Assembly: GCF_004348455.1 (NCBI RefSeq) | Contig: NZ_SMKA01000005.1 | Coordinates: forward strand, 1 to 64,000 | Source of the DNA: Kribbella albertanoniae | Lineage (GTDB): Bacteria; Actinomycetota; Actinomycetes; Propionibacteriales; Kribbellaceae | Reading direction: 5' to 3' | Length of the DNA: 64,000 nucleotides | Shown here: positions 36,005 through 44,415 of the stretch, one piece after another | Numbering within the stretch: position 1 is the stretch's first letter | Layout: the number at the start of each line of letters is the position of its first letter | Position numbers and translations under genes: made by a program | The notes under the pieces: generated by a model | Databases searched by the model: none | What the model saw: the letters and a program-made list of their open reading frames with translations, nothing else | What the model was told of the DNA's origin: nothing

Positions 36005-38647
36005 CTAGAGCACTGCTGCGTAGTCGCGGAACCTCTCAAGCGTGTCTGTTGGGATGCGGCCTAGGTCGGTCTCCATCAGCTGTGCCGTGACAGCTTCAGA
36101 GAATACGTGGTCGAGGTCAGTTAGGGTCTTGAGAACATCAAGCGATCCGTCGTCGACTATCGACCGAGCGCAGGTGTGAGCGACGGTGAACGCTCCGCTC
36201 TCCTGGGCGCCCGCACCAACTTGCATGGCAAGGCGTACGATCTCAGTCGGATTCTTTGCAGTGGATGCCCAATCCGAAATCGCGTTCCACGCAACCCGAA
36301 ACTGACCGGGATCGAGACGGACTGCAGCAAGGCATAACGCAGACAAAGACCGAACGCTGAGTGTCTCGAACTTTGGAATTCTTGCGACTTCGCGAAGTCT
36401 CGTTACGACCATTTCGAATGCCTCGCGCTGCCTGAGGCGCAGTGCCGTCACGCCTGCGCGCCGCAGCCAGGTAGTTAGGTGATCGGGCCTGTACTGACTG
36501 ATATCGGCGACCGAGAGTCGCCCGATGAAAATGACCGGCGTCTGTTCCTCTGGTCCAGAGGCCGAGAGACAATGATTGAAGACGACGTCGGCAGCCTTCC
36601 GGACTCCATCATCGCTATTGCTTGTGGCTGAAACGAGAAGTGTCATTACGTCGCGCAGGACTGGACTGACTGGATACACGGTGGAGAGTCCAGATCCGAG
36701 ATGCGTGCCGCCATCATCGCGAGTGTGCTTCGCTCGCAGTCGCGAACGCTCGGTGCTAGCCCGCAGAAGGTGTTCGGACAGAATGCGGCTGGCCTGCTCT
36801 GCGATGGCCTCTCCCAGTCGAACGTCGCCAGTCTTCGCGCTGTTCAAGGCGAGCGAGACCAGGGTGACAGCCTGAATGCTCACCTCCTCCAGTGGTCCAG
36901 CATCGACTGGCCTCAACCACTTGCGCAGCCTCTTTTGAAGTGACATCGGCAACTTTTGGGAGGCCGGCGGCTTAACATAGGCGATTGTGTCCCCAGCCGA
37001 GGCGATCAACCCGAATTGCGAATTGAACTGAATATGTGCACCATCTGCAAAGACCGGATCGGACAGAACTCGCAGCGCCTGGCGACGCTTTGGTAGTAGG
37101 ATGCCATGGGTCGGGGCGTCAATCTGCAATATGTCATGACCAACCATATGGCGAGCGCCGGTTCCAGCGGATGGCAGCGAATCTAGCCCCTTCCACAGAT
37201 GTGTTGCCCAGAATTGCGTGGAACCGAATACAGAGCTTGCTCGATTCCATTTACGGAGATGTCGGTCGACGTACGATTTACATGCCTCGGCCGGGTCCGT
37301 CCTGTGGAAAATCCGAAACATCGCGGCTGCCATCCAGCCGACCGATGCGATAAGGAGAGCCGCCTGGAGGATGGGCCAGATCTTCGGCGTCGGCGTTGGT
37401 GTATACGTCGAAGTCGATAGCAACGATAGCGCCGCTATATACGCGGCCGCCAGATGCCAGGGTTGCCCGGCCACCCGCGCGACCGCCCCAGGGAGTCTTT
37501 GTGTCGATAGTTGCACTGTAAACACGTTTATAGTTGCAATGAGAGCAACGATGGCAATCGCCCCCTCTAGGGGCATCGCCGCAAGTGAAATTTTTGCAAG
37601 CCACTTCCATTCGATATCACGGTGGGTAGAAATGATCAAAGCGACGATCGCCGGCGCGGCTACGAGAATTACACTTAAGGCGAATCCGGTTGCAAATGTG
37701 GTGATCTGTTCACCGAACCGGCGAGTTGGCGAAGGCAATGAAACCTTGGGCGCTGTGCGGAGTGATGTGTCCGCAGCCTTCGCAAACCTTTCTGCCTCGT
37801 GACTGCTCAACATCAGCGTCTTATTGATATTCATGAATGATGCTGCTGATTCAGTCCCTTTGCTCCGAACGCTTTGCGCCAGGAGATCTAGTGCGACAAT
37901 TCGTTTCGGACCACTGAGGGTTGCGCACAATTTTGTGAGATGCGATTCAATCTCTGGGCGTTGCGCTGCTAGATCTACTAGTGCCGCTGAGGCGCCCGGT
38001 CTCCTGGAATTGGAGTCATAAGGGTCGAGAGGAGCGCTCGCGAGGTGCCAAATCTTGTCAAAGACAGCCAATGTTTGGCGCTCAGGCAGGCTCGCGGCGA
38101 CGTGTCGAACCTGAAGCAGCATCAGATCCAGCAAGCTTCCACCAAGCCCTGCCGGGCCGTCCAAGACAATCGCCTCATAAATCGTCTGCGGCAACTCTGC
38201 GTCAAGCCGGTAGTTGTCCGTGAACCATCGGAGTCCAGTTGTCTGGAGCGATATCGGGAGCTTCGAAATGTCCGTAAGGATGTCTCTGGCGGAGGCCGCT
38301 GTCGCTGGTTGGCCGCTTAGAATCAGAAATAGCAATCTGTCAGCACTGAGGCCCGCCTTCAATATGTCGCGATGCTCAACCGAGATTGAGTTCGACGCGA
38401 CGGCCAGCAACACCGTGAGGCGGTTAATGTAGTCCGGGAGCGGCGTCCTCGTGGCTGTGTTGAGCCTTCCGACTCGTCCCAGTTGCGCCAGGCTGAACGC
38501 TGCTGAACGGCTATAGCAAGTTCTTGCGGTACGCCGAAGCGCCGAGGCTAGTAGGTCACATCTGGTAATCGGCTCAGGAACGCTTAGAGCCGTGGTGACC
38601 AGAGCGCTGTGAGCGAGTTGCTTGCCTGAGTTCGCGTCAACAGTCAC
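36005..38647 (-). CDS. Large membrane protein of unknown function, second gene of a coupled pair
   Basis: An 880-residue protein that I do not recognise. Residues 1-300 are helical and soluble. A membrane block follows with about four segments between 300 and 440 (GFALSVILVAAPAIVALIIS, GAIAIVALIATINVFTV, AAYIAALSLLS, ILQAALLIASVGWMAAAMF). The last 440 residues are again soluble and helical (TPR/HEAT-like in appearance), with no Cys/His metal site and no P-loop. It starts with GTG overlapping the stop of the upstream gene. Codon use is clearly less GC-biased than in flanking operons, a sign of transfer. Confidence 0.7.
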   Translation of the reverse strand: MTVDANSGKQLAHSALVTTALSVPEPITRCDLLASALRRTARTCYSRSAAFSLAQLGRVGRLNTATRTPLPDYINRLTVLLAVASNSISVEHRDILKAGLSADRLLFLILSGQPATAASARDILTDISKLPISLQTTGLRWFTDNYRLDAELPQTIYEAIVLDGPAGLGGSLLDLMLLQVRHVAASLPERQTLAVFDKIWHLASAPLDPYDSNSRRPGASAALVDLAAQRPEIESHLTKLCATLSGPKRIVALDLLAQSVRSKGTESAASFMNINKTLMLSSHEAERFAKAADTSLRTAPKVSLPSPTRRFGEQITTFATGFALSVILVAAPAIVALIISTHRDIEWKWLAKISLAAMPLEGAIAIVALIATINVFTVQLSTQRLPGAVARVAGQPWHLAAAYIAALSLLSTSTYTPTPTPKIWPILQAALLIASVGWMAAAMFRIFHRTDPAEACKSYVDRHLRKWNRASSVFGSTQFWATHLWKGLDSLPSAGTGARHMVGHDILQIDAPTHGILLPKRRQALRVLSDPVFADGAHIQFNSQFGLIASAGDTIAYVKPPASQKLPMSLQKRLRKWLRPVDAGPLEEVSIQAVTLVSLALNSAKTGDVRLGEAIAEQASRILSEHLLRASTERSRLRAKHTRDDGGTHLGSGLSTVYPVSPVLRDVMTLLVSATSNSDDGVRKAADVVFNHCLSASGPEEQTPVIFIGRLSVADISQYRPDHLTTWLRRAGVTALRLRQREAFEMVVTRLREVARIPKFETLSVRSLSALCLAAVRLDPGQFRVAWNAISDWASTAKNPTEIVRLAMQVGAGAQESGAFTVAHTCARSIVDDGSLDVLKTLTDLDHVFSEAVTAQLMETDLGRIPTDTLERFRDYAAVL

Positions 38648-40005
38648 TCGGCCACCTGGACAGCGATCCTGGGAACGTCCGGTTGCATGATCTCCATCCC
38701 AGGGAAGTAGATCGGTGACTTCGGCTCCGGCATATGGACCGCCGCTGGGTTGAAGATTTCGACCGAAGCCCTGGAGAGAGCTGCCAACTGTTGCTCGGCC
38801 AGCTTCTGGGAAACCTCTGGCCAGTCTCCGACCTGCGCACGTGCATCCGGGAATTGTTGCATCACCTTGGCGGACAGAAGCATGTGAAGGAAAGATTCAC
38901 GATTCGCAGTGGTGATAACCAAAGGCTCGAGAATGCTGAGGCCGAGCGTAGACCCGAGTTGCTTACCTCCCTTCACCGGAAGGACGGGAGAGATCTTCAC
39001 TGGAACATGTTCTCGATTTACAAGGGCGTGTTTCTCGGATATTTCCAAGATATCCTCCGGTCTAATCACCCACGGATTTTTCAGAGGCACAGCTTCCATT
39101 GACAGGAGGCCCATTCCGCAAACGAACCCATCTCTTGCCATTTGGGCCGTTAGCGACGGTATTCCACCGATCTCCAGGAGGTCACGGGCCTTCTGGAGCA
39201 TGCTCTCAGGACCGGGGCCCGTGATCGTCCACCCTTGGGTGAGAACGTTGACGATCTTGTCGATGGTGAGACGAGCATTAGGCATGGAGTTGTAGACATG
39301 TCTGACCAGCGGCATTCGGGTGCGGATTTGCTCAGCGGCGAGCAGCGGGGCCTCGTATCTGACATTCAAGGTGAACCCGCTCGCATCTGCGCGAGCGCGT
39401 ATTGCGTGGCACGCATTTTGCCATCCGTGATTTCGGATTTCGGCACCGACCAGGTTAGTGGTCTCCTGGTCCACCCGAGCTGCTTGATCAGGCAGAGATG
39501 GAATCTTCTCTTTAGGGGTTCTCCTAACGAGATCCTGCCGCGCGACCAGCATCGCCAGCGCAGTTAGCGTTGACTCGATCTGTGTTTCAATCGAAGAGTT
39601 GAGGACGCATGCCCAGATCGATGGCGATTCCTGCGAACTGTCGGTTGGCGACTGTATCGTCACCCCGGGGCTATTCAGCAGGGTTTCGAGTGCAGCCGAG
39701 TCGATCCAGTCCGCCATCTGCTCGCTTGCCCAATCGTGCCCCAAAGCCTCCAGGCGTGGGATTGGGCGGGGCGCTTGGTTGTCTGCATGAATAGGCAGGA
39801 GCCAGAACCCAAACAGCTTCGGATTCAAGAAGCCGGGTTGCTCGTAGTGTCCCACCCGTACGTAGAGGTGGTTGTCTGTCTTGCTGTCGCGAGTCGAACT
39901 GACCTCTGAGCAAAGCTCTTGGAGGAGGGTGGACGACGCAGTGCGATGTTCGTCGGTGACCTCAGCGGGCTCTGTGCGGTCGTCTGGCATAGGAATGTAG
40001 GCCAC
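38644..40005 (-). CDS. Soluble protein of unknown function, first gene of a coupled pair
   Basis: A 453-residue protein with no membrane helix, signal or known catalytic motif. Visible parts are an acidic start (MPDDRTEPAEVTDEHRTASS), a central segment with NSMPNARLTIDKIVNVLTQG and a C-terminal EPKSPIYFPGMEIMQP. GTG 40005 is the longest start; ATG 39990 (MPDDRTEP) is a good alternative, since neither has a clear ribosome site. It overlaps the 880-residue membrane protein by four bases, so the two are made together. Base composition is foreign like its partner. A defence or membrane-stress role is possible but unproven. Confidence 0.65.
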   Translation of the reverse strand: MAYIPMPDDRTEPAEVTDEHRTASSTLLQELCSEVSSTRDSKTDNHLYVRVGHYEQPGFLNPKLFGFWLLPIHADNQAPRPIPRLEALGHDWASEQMADWIDSAALETLLNSPGVTIQSPTDSSQESPSIWACVLNSSIETQIESTLTALAMLVARQDLVRRTPKEKIPSLPDQAARVDQETTNLVGAEIRNHGWQNACHAIRARADASGFTLNVRYEAPLLAAEQIRTRMPLVRHVYNSMPNARLTIDKIVNVLTQGWTITGPGPESMLQKARDLLEIGGIPSLTAQMARDGFVCGMGLLSMEAVPLKNPWVIRPEDILEISEKHALVNREHVPVKISPVLPVKGGKQLGSTLGLSILEPLVITTANRESFLHMLLSAKVMQQFPDARAQVGDWPEVSQKLAEQQLAALSRASVEIFNPAAVHMPEPKSPIYFPGMEIMQPDVPRIAVQVAE

Positions 40006-41969: not shown

Positions 41970-42599
41970 TCAGTGAAGGGCAGGCTCGGGGTGCAGGGTG
42001 GCCAGCGGGAGGCCGGACAGGTGGAGGGTGGGGTGTAGCCAGTCGTTGAGGATGGGGGCTTCGGTGGCTAGGTGGTTGGCTAGTTCGGTGCGGCTCAGTT
42101 CGAAGACGTGGGCGGGGTTGCCGGTGAGGTCGACGACGGTTTGCATGAGGCGGCCGGCTTGTTCGTTCCAGAGGGGATCGTTGGCGTCGAGGTCGTCGGG
42201 GCGGATGAGCAGGAGCTCGACGTCGGACTCGAGGTCGCCGTCGGCGCGGGCCAGGGCGCCGTACACGGAGGCGTGGACCGGCGGGAGGCGCCAGGCGGTC
42301 AGTTCGTCGGCGATGCGGTTGACGAGGGCGGCGCGGAGGTCGGCCAGGAACTCGACGACCGGGGCAGCGAGGTGCTTGCGGTTCAGCCGGTAGGACAGGG
42401 AGTTGCCGGCGTCGTCGACGTGGACGAGGCCGGTGGCGGCGAGCCGCTGGAGGACCAGGCGGACCCCGGCCACACTGCCCTGACCTGCAAGTTTGTGGAC
42501 CTCACGCCCCGACAACCCCTCGTCCGCCCGAGCCAGGACCTGGAGGACCGGCCCGTCCAGGGAGGGGATCACGGTGCTGATCGGCGTCTTCAGGTCCAT
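41970..42599 (-). CDS. Winged-helix plus nucleotidyltransferase-fold protein
   Basis: A 209-residue protein. Residues 15-75 form a winged helix (VLQVLARADEGLSGREVHKL). Residues about 95-150 match the start of the pol-beta/MNT nucleotidyltransferase fold, with ASVYGALARADGDLESDVEL where the family has G-S-x-ARGD-x-x-SD-D/E-x-DL. The second Asp of the usual pair is Glu here, so activity is uncertain. Proteins of this design are found beside toxin-antitoxin genes. It lies 74 bp downstream of, and in the same direction as, the DprA/phosphoribosyltransferase pair. Confidence 0.68.
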   Translation of the reverse strand: MDLKTPISTVIPSLDGPVLQVLARADEGLSGREVHKLAGQGSVAGVRLVLQRLAATGLVHVDDAGNSLSYRLNRKHLAAPVVEFLADLRAALVNRIADELTAWRLPPVHASVYGALARADGDLESDVELLLIRPDDLDANDPLWNEQAGRLMQTVVDLTGNPAHVFELSRTELANHLATEAPILNDWLHPTLHLSGLPLATLHPEPALH

Positions 42600-42672
42600 G
42601 ACGAGACAGTAGTAACCGATCAGCTCCGCAGAGTAATCATCCTGATCTGGAAGTATTCCTGGGCGGCGGCGA

Positions 42673-43407
42673 TCAGCCGTCCAGGGCGCAGACCGAGAGG
42701 TCGAACTCTGCCGCACGCGCTCGCTCGACCAGCGCCTTCGACCCCGCGTGGGCACCGTTCACATGGCGACCCAGGACAACGGTCACGACAGCCTGCGCAC
42801 CCGACACCTTCAAGGCATGAGCAAGCGACTGTGCCCTCGAGCCCGTGGTCCAGGTGTCATCAAGCAGCAGGACCCGAGCCCCGTCGACCGGGGGTGCGAC
42901 GAAGCGATCGGGCTGGAAGGTTCGGTCGTCGGGGGGATGGTGCGCACCGATTGCGACTGCCAGAAACGGCAACGACAGACCTGGAGCGAGGAGCGCTTGA
43001 AGCGGATGTATCCCAGTCCGTCCACGGGTGCTCGGAACTACTGCCGCGTGGGTCAGGCGGCCGCCCGCTGGACCTTCGAGGCAGCGTCGATGCGTGCCGA
43101 GGAACAGCATGCCGAGCGCGCGAAGCGCGCCACGAGCCGCCTGCGAGGGATGCTCGAACTTGTAGGTGGCCAGATGGTGCGCGTGCTGCTTACCCTTCAG
43201 CGCATAGGCGATCGGCACGACAGCGTCCGCGATCATCCTGCTTCCGTCTCGATGACTCCGGCAGGGAAAGCAGATGTCGTAGGCATCCTTGGCGGCCGAT
43301 CTGCAGACACGGCAGATGCCAGGTCCCTCGGGCAATGGGTTACGCAGAAAGACTGCCTGGCGGGCCACCGACGCCCGGAACGACTCCAGTGGATCAGAAC
43401 TGGACAA
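42673..43407 (-). CDS. ComF-like phosphoribosyltransferase (ShosT-like candidate)
   Basis: A 244-residue protein with an N-terminal zinc ribbon (CRVC near residue 32 and CFPC near 46) and a phosphoribosyltransferase domain whose PRPP loop is VLLLDDTWTTGSRAQSL near residue 175. The TTG start at 43407 lies inside the DprA-like gene (14-bp overlap), with AGGAA about eight bases before. ComF proteins act in DNA uptake. In ShosTA modules a PRTase toxin is paired with a DprA-like antitoxin, and this gene pair has the same two folds. The toxin role is inferred. Confidence 0.75.
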   Translation of the reverse strand: MSSSDPLESFRASVARQAVFLRNPLPEGPGICRVCRSAAKDAYDICFPCRSHRDGSRMIADAVVPIAYALKGKQHAHHLATYKFEHPSQAARGALRALGMLFLGTHRRCLEGPAGGRLTHAAVVPSTRGRTGIHPLQALLAPGLSLPFLAVAIGAHHPPDDRTFQPDRFVAPPVDGARVLLLDDTWTTGSRAQSLAHALKVSGAQAVVTVVLGRHVNGAHAGSKALVERARAAEFDLSVCALDG

Positions 43408-44326
43408 CGGTCGACAGTTCCTGCGGCGACTCGAAGCCTCCGGCAGCTTCGGCGACCAGCTTCTCGGTCACCGCCAGAAGTTCCTCGGTGTTGTCCACGA
43501 CGTACACGCCGGGACGCTCCGCGTAGTCGCGAGCCCAGTCATGCTCGAGTAGCTCACGCGGCATCACGACCGGCCGTCCGTGCTGCAGCGCCAGCCGCGC
43601 CTGGATCCGGGCGCCACTGCGCCACGGCGCCTCGACCACGACAGTGGCAGCGGCGTACCCACTCATCACCGCGTTGCGCATCGGAAAGGTCTGCTTCGTC
43701 GGGGCACCGTCGGGCCAGAACTGGCTGAGTACCAGACCCCTCCGACCGATCTCCTGCTGCAACTGGGCGTTGGCTGCCGGGTAGGCGCGCCGAATGCCAG
43801 TCCCGATCACAGCGACGGTCCGGCCCTGCGCCTGCAGTGCGGCCGTGTGGGCTGCGGTATCGATTCCGGCGGCAAGCCCACTGACAACCGTCACATCATT
43901 CCTCGCGAGCGCCGTAGCGACCGTACGAGCGATACCAAGCCCCCGCGCACTGGCCTGCCGGGTACCCACGACGGCGACAGCTCTTCGATCATCACGCACT
44001 TCACCCCGCGTGAAGATGACCGGAGGCAGTTGATGAACATCACGAAGCTGTGCCGGGTAGCTCGAGTCGTAGAAGGCGTGAACGCCGATACCTTCTGCTT
44101 CCCACTGCTGGATGTCGCGCTCGGCCTTGTCCAGAGCAGCCTGGGCATCACCCACCGCGAAGAGCACGTCACCCCCAGCGAGATATCGCTCCAGGACTAC
44201 CGTCGCGCTTCCCAGCTCCAGGACTTCGGCGGTCACCTCCGCCCAGCGGACCCCAGGTTGCTGCAGCAGCGCAACCAGCGCGGCCCTCTCTGCCCGGATC
44301 GGCTCCACGAACCAGATGTTATCCAT
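43394..44326 (-). CDS. DprA/Smf-like protein (ShosA-like candidate)
   Basis: A 310-residue protein whose core is the DprA Rossmann fold: AVAVVGTRQASARGLGIART near 117-136, VTVVSGLAAGIDTAAHTAAL near 145-165, AVIGTGIRRAYPAANAQLQ, LSQFWPDGAPTKQTFPMRNA, and PWRSGARIQARLALQHGRPV. The C-terminal winged helix of full-length chromosomal DprA is missing. True DprA loads RecA in transformation. Standalone DprA-like proteins also serve as antitoxin or sensor in defence modules. The gene overlaps the phosphoribosyltransferase and has its own upstream palindrome. Confidence 0.78.
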   Translation of the reverse strand: MDNIWFVEPIRAERAALVALLQQPGVRWAEVTAEVLELGSATVVLERYLAGGDVLFAVGDAQAALDKAERDIQQWEAEGIGVHAFYDSSYPAQLRDVHQLPPVIFTRGEVRDDRRAVAVVGTRQASARGLGIARTVATALARNDVTVVSGLAAGIDTAAHTAALQAQGRTVAVIGTGIRRAYPAANAQLQQEIGRRGLVLSQFWPDGAPTKQTFPMRNAVMSGYAAATVVVEAPWRSGARIQARLALQHGRPVVMPRELLEHDWARDYAERPGVYVVDNTEELLAVTEKLVAEAAGGFESPQELSTVVQF

Positions 44327-44375
44327 CCTCAAGCACCTGCTGTCGCAGCAACACTGCGCTCTCTCAAATCGAGAC

Positions 44376-44393
44376 TTCGAACATTTGCTCGAA
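44376..44393. promoter_or_regulatory. Inverted repeat upstream of the DprA-like gene
   Basis: TTCGA and TCGAA are perfect 5-bp arms with an 8-base spacer in an AT-rich 90-bp gap. They lie 50 bp upstream of the DprA-like start and 38 bp before the permease stop. It could be the autoregulatory site of a toxin-antitoxin-type operon. The arms are short. Confidence 0.35.
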
Positions 44394-44415
44394 TATATCA
44401 GAGAAGCAGAGCGAC

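What the first reader, a model, noticed from the sequence alone, without database searches (positions are those of the whole stretch)
42673..44326. DprA-like plus ComF-like phosphoribosyltransferase pair resembling ShosTA defence modules
The DprA core motifs are intact, but the protein lacks the C-terminal winged helix of chromosomal DprA. The next gene, which starts inside its end, has a zinc ribbon and an intact PRPP loop. ShosTA, a known toxin-antitoxin and anti-phage pair, joins a PRTase toxin and a DprA-like antitoxin. Here the order is antitoxin-like first, with a palindrome upstream and an MNT/winged-helix gene just downstream. The alternative is a competence-type pair.
Basis: partly seen in the sequence, partly recalled or inferred. 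Interest (0 to 1): 0.7.

Follow-up and report, generated by a model that had tools for sequence, protein, structure and literature searches.

The report
SOS-boxed ShosTA-type toxin–antitoxin cassette
A small, inserted two-gene cassette in a Kribbella genome encodes a DprA-like protein and a PRPP-binding enzyme that resemble the ShosTA phage-defence toxin–antitoxin pair, and its promoter carries a binding site for LexA, the DNA-damage (SOS) repressor, a feature shared by about half of its actinobacterial relatives and by several proteobacterial ones.

Summary
The pair is real and intact: a DprA-like gene (43394-44326, -) overlaps a zinc-ribbon PRTase gene (42673-43407, -). It is not the competence pair: the host has its own comF and dprA (the latter split by an assembly gap), and only 3 of 37 congeners carry the module. 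The closest relative has an exact empty site: a 1,770-bp insertion (42646-44415) holds just the two genes and their promoter. Relatives sit on phages and plasmids, nearly always as DprA then PRTase. Profile and tree place it with ShosTA, but the toxin lacks the HAD domain of E. coli ShosT and belongs to an actinobacterial subfamily that PADLOC's ShosT profile barely detects. The upstream palindrome is a LexA/SOS box. Such boxes precede 38 of 75 shosA genes (18 exact) against 6 of 512 neighbouring genes; alphaproteobacterial plasmids and proteobacterial phages carry their own phylum's LexA box. I found no paper linking LexA to ShosTA. Best reading: an SOS-controlled, compact ShosTA-type toxin–antitoxin/defence module. 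Toxicity, neutralisation, defence and LexA binding are inferred. The adjacent MNT gene is a genus core gene, not part of it.

The parts
42646..44415 (.). inserted cassette (1,770 bp) absent from the closest relative G021, where 4 nt separate the two flanks
   Evidence: G021 (L097) 3907-4490 matches window 44999-44416 and 4495-5121 matches 42645-42019
43394..44326 (-). shosA-like gene, DprA-like (SLOG/Rossmann) putative antitoxin, 310 aa, no C-terminal winged helix
42673..43407 (-). shosT-like gene, zinc-ribbon PRTase, putative toxin, 244 aa (TTG start), no HAD domain
42841..42873 (-). PRPP loop VLLLDDTWTTG of the PRTase (residues 179-189)
43261..43314 (-). zinc ribbon C32-x2-C35 / C46-x2-C49 of the PRTase, invariant in 56 aligned sequences
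44377..44392 (.). LexA/SOS box TCGAACATTTGCTCGA, its near end 51 nt upstream of the shosA ATG; fits the S. venezuelae ChIP consensus tCGAAC-N4-GNNCGa

Best explanation
A compact ShosTA-type toxin–antitoxin / anti-phage cassette, horizontally mobile and wired to the SOS response. LexA bound to the box in the shosA promoter keeps the shosA-shosT operon low; ssDNA or DNA damage (phage replication, incoming plasmid or phage DNA) activates RecA, LexA is cleaved and the operon rises. ShosA (DprA-like, expected to bind DNA) restrains ShosT; when phage takeover or DNA intermediates disable ShosA, the PRPP-binding ShosT acts on nucleotide metabolism and stops the infected cell. Shown here: intact genes, operon overlap, cassette insertion with empty site, distribution, kinship, conserved catalytic and zinc residues, and the conserved LexA box. 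Inferred: toxicity, neutralisation, trigger, phage defence, LexA repression.
For: ShosA profile 8.3e-65, ShosT profile 7.6e-4. 67 of 80 PRTase relatives in bacterial genomes have a ShosA-like gene, a 4-nt overlap being commonest. 39 ShosA-like proteins form one clade (support 0.89) that holds none of 14 chromosomal DprA. Confident PRTase model (pLDDT 95.8) whose three best solved matches are ShosT 8zvd (Z 9.4), H. pylori ComF (9.1) and ShosT+PRPP 8zvc (8.9). Carriers: Gordonia phages Vasanti and Bosnia near integrase genes, Pseudonocardia and Rhodococcus plasmids. Exact empty site. LexA box: 38/75 with at most 1 mismatch, 18 exact, against 1.2% in shuffles and 6/512 other genes, 0/75 for the reversed pattern; the host's recA and lexA loci carry exact boxes. 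5 of 6 alphaproteobacterial plasmid copies carry exact GTTC-N7-GTTC 107-110 nt upstream, and two proteobacterial phage copies carry TACTGT-N8-ACAGTA.
Against: No experiment on any member of this actinobacterial subfamily. The ShosT profile match is weak and covers only the PRPP-loop region; the structural match to ShosT is tied with ComF. The HAD domain of E. coli ShosT is absent, so its reported dual activity may not transfer. About half of the family lacks a recognisable box, and so does the E. coli P2-phage reference. 13 of 80 loci have the PRTase without a ShosA-like gene in reach.
Confidence: 0.72

Rival explanations
1. A LexA-controlled DNA-repair/recombination or competence-type pair: the DprA-like protein loads RecA on ssDNA and the ComF-like PRTase assists, serving repair or DNA uptake rather than defence.
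For: DprA and ComF are homologues and SOS control fits repair; the PRTase model ties ShosT with H. pylori ComF; LexA box; a review says ShosA promotes homologous recombination (PMC12593503).
Against: Separate comF and dprA loci exist; patchy presence, phage and plasmid carriage; clade apart from chromosomal DprA; DDTW signature instead of the DDVITTG of the host ComF.
Confidence: 0.13
2. A selfish or life-cycle module of mobile elements: an SOS-induced addiction or takeover pair that helps phages and plasmids persist or exclude rivals at induction, without benefit to the host.
For: Located near integrase genes in temperate phages, on plasmids; SOS control matches prophage induction.
Against: Here it is a bare 1,770-bp cassette with no mobile-element genes, and relatives occur in many chromosome-sized contigs.
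Confidence: 0.1
3. A relic: a degraded import without present function.
For: Rare in the genus.
Against: Both frames are open, all invariant residues and the operator are kept, and the copy in G018 is 70-77% identical.
Confidence: 0.05

Closest known systems
ShosTA of E. coli P2-like phages / APEC O1 (PDB 8zva ShosA, 8zvb-d and 9w2p/9w2q ShosT; Peduovirus P24C9)
   Same: DprA-like + PRTase operon, DprA-like gene first in the P2-phage copy; PRPP-binding fold; carried by mobile elements.
   Different: E. coli ShosT is about 430 aa with an N-terminal HAD-like domain, absent here; the P2-phage copy has no LexA box in the 147 nt available upstream.
Compact proteobacterial ShosTA (PADLOC PDLC03961/PDLC03962; Burkholderia phage Mana, Rhizobium plasmids)
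   Same: Two short genes, same order, no HAD-sized domain in the toxin; LexA box of the host's own type upstream.
   Different: Their PRTase scores 141-163 bits on PDLC03962, the actinobacterial ones 17-23 bits over the PRPP-loop region only.
PsyrTA / RqlHI
   Same: DprA-like antitoxin with PRTase-domain toxin; the PRTase domain was shown to be toxic in RqlH (PMC4670107).
   Different: That toxin is a RecQ-like helicase fused to the PRTase; the window's DprA-like protein scores 94.8 bits on PsyrA against 217 on ShosA.
Competence DprA and ComF
   Same: Fold and zinc-ribbon PRTase architecture.
   Different: Below NCBIfam cut-offs (TIGR00732 180 of 191 bits; TIGR00201 18 of 234), different clade, no C-terminal winged helix, patchy.

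Membership tests
ShosTA | DprA-like protein of the ShosA family | tested here: met
   PDLC03961 8.3e-65, better than PsyrA and the second ShosA model; structural match 8zva Z 28.9, though DprA 3maj is higher
ShosTA | PRTase of the ShosT family | tested here: inconclusive
   PDLC03962 7.6e-4 over the PRPP-loop region only; best solved fold ShosT 8zvd Z 9.4 but tied with ComF 9.1
ShosTA | N-terminal HAD-like domain, as in E. coli ShosT (not present in every protein covered by PADLOC's shorter ShosT profile, so not strictly defining) | tested here: not met
   PF00702 in the P2-phage ShosT residues 30-127; the window protein aligns only to chain residues 149-413; 225-aa PRTase of phage Mana still matches PDLC03962 at 1.2e-41
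ShosTA | two genes in one operon, carried on mobile elements or as patchy cassettes | tested here: met
ShosTA | ShosT toxic, ShosA neutralises it, pair defends against phage | not testable with these tools
   needs bench work
chromosomal DprA (TIGR00732) | full-length DprA with C-terminal winged helix, present throughout the genus | tested here: not met
   180.2 bits against cut-off 191.15; model covered to 190 of 212; short form in 4 of the genus genomes only
ComF (TIGR00201) | ComF profile match over the whole protein | tested here: not met
   18.3 bits over 39 positions; the genome's own ComF scores 56.7 bits over nearly the whole profile, also below the curated cut-off
LexA regulon member | LexA box in the promoter | tested here: met
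   consensus from PMC9380542
LexA regulon member | LexA binding and induction by DNA damage | not testable with these tools
   needs binding assay and mitomycin C induction

The most novel reading that the evidence does not exclude
SOS control is a general design feature of compact ShosTA modules, acquired independently in at least three LexA dialects (actinobacterial CGAAC-N4-GTTCG, alphaproteobacterial GTTC-N7-GTTC, beta/gammaproteobacterial CTGT-N8-ACAG), so that this defence toxin–antitoxin is switched on by DNA damage or invading DNA through the host's own SOS circuit; and the actinobacterial zinc-ribbon, HAD-less ShosT is a distinct toxin subfamily.
Probability: 0.6. Interest if true: 0.72.

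Novelty: new variant of a known kind. Interest (0 to 1): 0.6.

Why it matters
It would tie a phage-defence toxin–antitoxin that is described as acting through DNA damage and repair to the host's own DNA-damage circuit, with a precise operator that is easy to test. It also extends ShosTA to a large actinobacterial subfamily whose toxin current profiles barely detect, and it offers a minimal PRTase toxin without the HAD domain, which could separate the roles of the two domains.

Tried and rejected
Competence pair: rejected on separate comF and dprA loci and patchiness. 'Only dprA in the genome': an assembly-gap artefact; contig C26 begins with the DprA winged helix and the C355 match ends at the dprA start. 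MNT/winged-helix gene as third component: rejected, found in all genus genomes searched with or without the pair. Gene order as a difference from ShosTA: rejected. Flanking direct repeats or mobile-element genes at the cassette ends: none found. Consensus promoter/terminator scan: nothing. Viral-contig scans gave little. The ShosTA mechanism paper (Pu et al. 2025) is not in the library, so its content is cited through a review. The Leptolyngbya plasmid copy has no PRTase gene annotated next to it and no cyanobacterial LexA box. In the first tree a mis-extracted sequence (L012) distorted the root; it was removed. In the second tree the 14 chromosomal DprA were not reported as strictly monophyletic after rooting; only the monophyly of the ShosA set is used.

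Full report
WHAT IS THERE. On the minus strand, a DprA-like gene (43394-44326, 310 aa) is followed, with a 14-nt overlap, by a PRTase gene (42673-43407, 244 aa, TTG start). The first protein hits PF02481 (8.8e-61) but covers the model only to position 190, whereas the 394-aa chromosomal DprA of a congener covers it to 210 and continues with a winged-helix-like tail. The second has an intact PRPP loop (VLLLDDTWTTG) and a zinc ribbon; in 56 aligned sequences the four ribbon cysteines and D184-T185-W186 are invariant.

NOT THE COMPETENCE PAIR. The genome search found no other DprA, but this is an assembly gap: a relative's dprA region matches contig C355 up to the dprA start and contig C26 from its first base, and C26 begins with 40 codons of the DprA winged helix. 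All 36 congeners searched have a full-length dprA; only G002, G018 and G026 have a second, short, complete one. A ComF is on contig C53.

AN INSERTED CASSETTE. In the closest relative found at this place (G021, neighbouring proteins 89-95% identical) the ABC-transporter permease gene and the MNT gene lie about 50 nt apart; alignment places the insertion at window 42646-44415, 1,770 bp, against 4 nt in G021. G029 and G015 also lack it. G018 has an orthologous pair (77% and 70% identical) between homologues of the same wider flanks, with other genes added, so the region next to the MNT gene is a variable site. The MNT/winged-helix gene itself has a homologue in every genus genome searched and is therefore not part of the module. 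A search of 391 genomes of the order found the PRTase in 13.

KINSHIP. PADLOC's ShosA profile gives 8.3e-65, PsyrA 1.5e-27; its ShosT profile only 7.6e-4. 39 ShosA-like proteins, including those of the window, of Gordonia phages and of plasmids, form one clade (support 0.89) that holds no chromosomal DprA. Among 80 relatives of the PRTase in the genome collection 67 have a ShosA-like gene, nearly always directly upstream, most often with a 4-nt overlap. Gordonia phages Vasanti and Bosnia carry the pair near integrase genes, and Pseudonocardia, Rhodococcus and Streptomyces plasmids carry it too. The reference ShosTA of a P2-like phage has the same order, DprA first; a Pf phage has the opposite one.

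STRUCTURE. The PRTase model is confident (pLDDT 95.8); its three best solved matches are ShosT with phosphate (8zvd, Z 9.4, 184 aligned, rmsd 4.4), H. pylori ComF (7p0h, Z 9.1, 169 aligned, rmsd 4.2) and ShosT with PRPP-Mg (8zvc, Z 8.9, 168 aligned, rmsd 3.8), which are tied; ordinary PRTases follow at 7.8 or less. The alignment to ShosT starts at its residue 149: the N-terminal HAD-like domain of E. coli ShosT is missing here. The DprA-like model matches DprA (3maj, Z 32.5) and ShosA (8zva, 28.9); the fold cannot tell them apart.

THE PALINDROME IS A LexA BOX. 44377-44392 reads TCGAACATTTGCTCGA, which fits the ChIP-derived Streptomyces consensus tCGAAC-N4-GNNCGa (PMC9380542) and differs by one base from CGAAC-N4-GTTCG. 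It lies inside the cassette, its near end 51 nt before the shosA ATG. The genome's recA and lexA loci carry exact boxes, and TCGAAC-N4-GTTCGA occurs 12 times in the genome against once for the reversed pattern. Upstream of 75 shosA genes of actinobacteria and their phages and plasmids, 38 have a box with at most one mismatch and 18 an exact one; shuffles give 1.2% and 0.04%, 512 other genes of the same loci give 6 and 0, and the reversed pattern gives none in 75. Taken alone, the chance of a one-mismatch box in 240 bases of this window is about 2% (6 in 64 kb), so the weight rests on the conservation. Related loci are not independent, but the boxed ones come from many genera.

OTHER PHYLA. Five of six alphaproteobacterial plasmid copies have an exact GTTC-N7-GTTC 107-110 nt upstream of shosA, with varying spacers (chance 0.3% each), beside a TATAAT-like hexamer in several. 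Burkholderia phage Mana has TACTGTATGCATAAACAGTA and a related viral contig TACTGTATGTATACACAGTA upstream of shosA. GTTC-N7-GTTC and CTG-type palindromes are the LexA boxes described for alphaproteobacteria and E. coli (PMC3091678). The E. coli P2-phage copy and the E. coli plasmid copies have none; two Enterobacter plasmid copies have a GTTC-N7-GTTC match, which is not the enterobacterial box and is left unexplained. Full-text searches found no paper that ties LexA or SOS to ShosTA regulation; the library is partial.

HOW IT PROBABLY WORKS. A review of Pu et al. 2025 states that ShosT is a PRTase and pyrophosphatase that disturbs purine metabolism, that ShosA binds DNA and counters it, and that a T7 protein is a trigger (PMC12593503); Rousset et al. 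showed defence against T7 and lambda by a DprA-PRTase pair (PMC9122126). RqlH, a related toxin, needs its PRPP pocket to be toxic (PMC4670107). From anatomy I infer the same for this compact pair, with LexA adding a DNA-damage switch. Raising toxin and antitoxin together would prime the cell; release of the toxin would still need loss or diversion of ShosA. The step from box to repression, and every step after it, is inference.

NOVELTY. The kind is known (ShosTA). New here are the distinct actinobacterial zinc-ribbon toxin subfamily without HAD domain, which the existing ShosT profile scores at 17-23 bits, and the recurrent LexA operator.

Noticed in passing
window 36005-40005: Two overlapping genes (453 aa then 880 aa, minus strand) of unusually low GC (about 0.55-0.60 against 0.66) with no match in Pfam, NCBIfam, PADLOC or PHROGs, in a stretch of about 7 kb next to the MNT gene that relatives such as G015 lack. 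The pair recurs in only 2 other genomes of 391 (G006 65%/55%, G043 50%/40%), in G043 next to a distant MNT homologue: a candidate mobile two-gene system.
   Followed up: partly
window 41970-42602: Winged-helix plus nucleotidyltransferase-like gene, core in the genus; resembles PADLOC candidate PDC-M05A (7e-11); its GS and DxD motifs look altered (GA, DVE).
   Followed up: partly
L110 6869-7567, L111 8413-9030, L114 8930-9547, L113 6642-7274; L232 and L235 downstream of shosT: A second, divergent PRTase gene accompanies the pair in some genomes of the order, and a convergent PRTase-family gene follows it on Rhizobiaceae plasmids: possible three-gene variants.
   Followed up: no
L148, L150, L154, L179, L183, L197, L199, L208: ShosT-like PRTases without ShosA, several next to what look like LigD-type or endonuclease III repair genes in actinobacterial genomes: possibly domesticated.
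   Followed up: no
L124, L125, L127, L129, L131: Exact LexA boxes at the start of a family of repeated genes that look like 13E12/DUF222 proteins in the host genome.
   Followed up: no
L223 and L224, upstream of the shosA-like gene: Two Enterobacter plasmid copies carry an exact GTTC-N7-GTTC, the alphaproteobacterial rather than the enterobacterial LexA box; may be chance or a trace of transfer.
   Followed up: no
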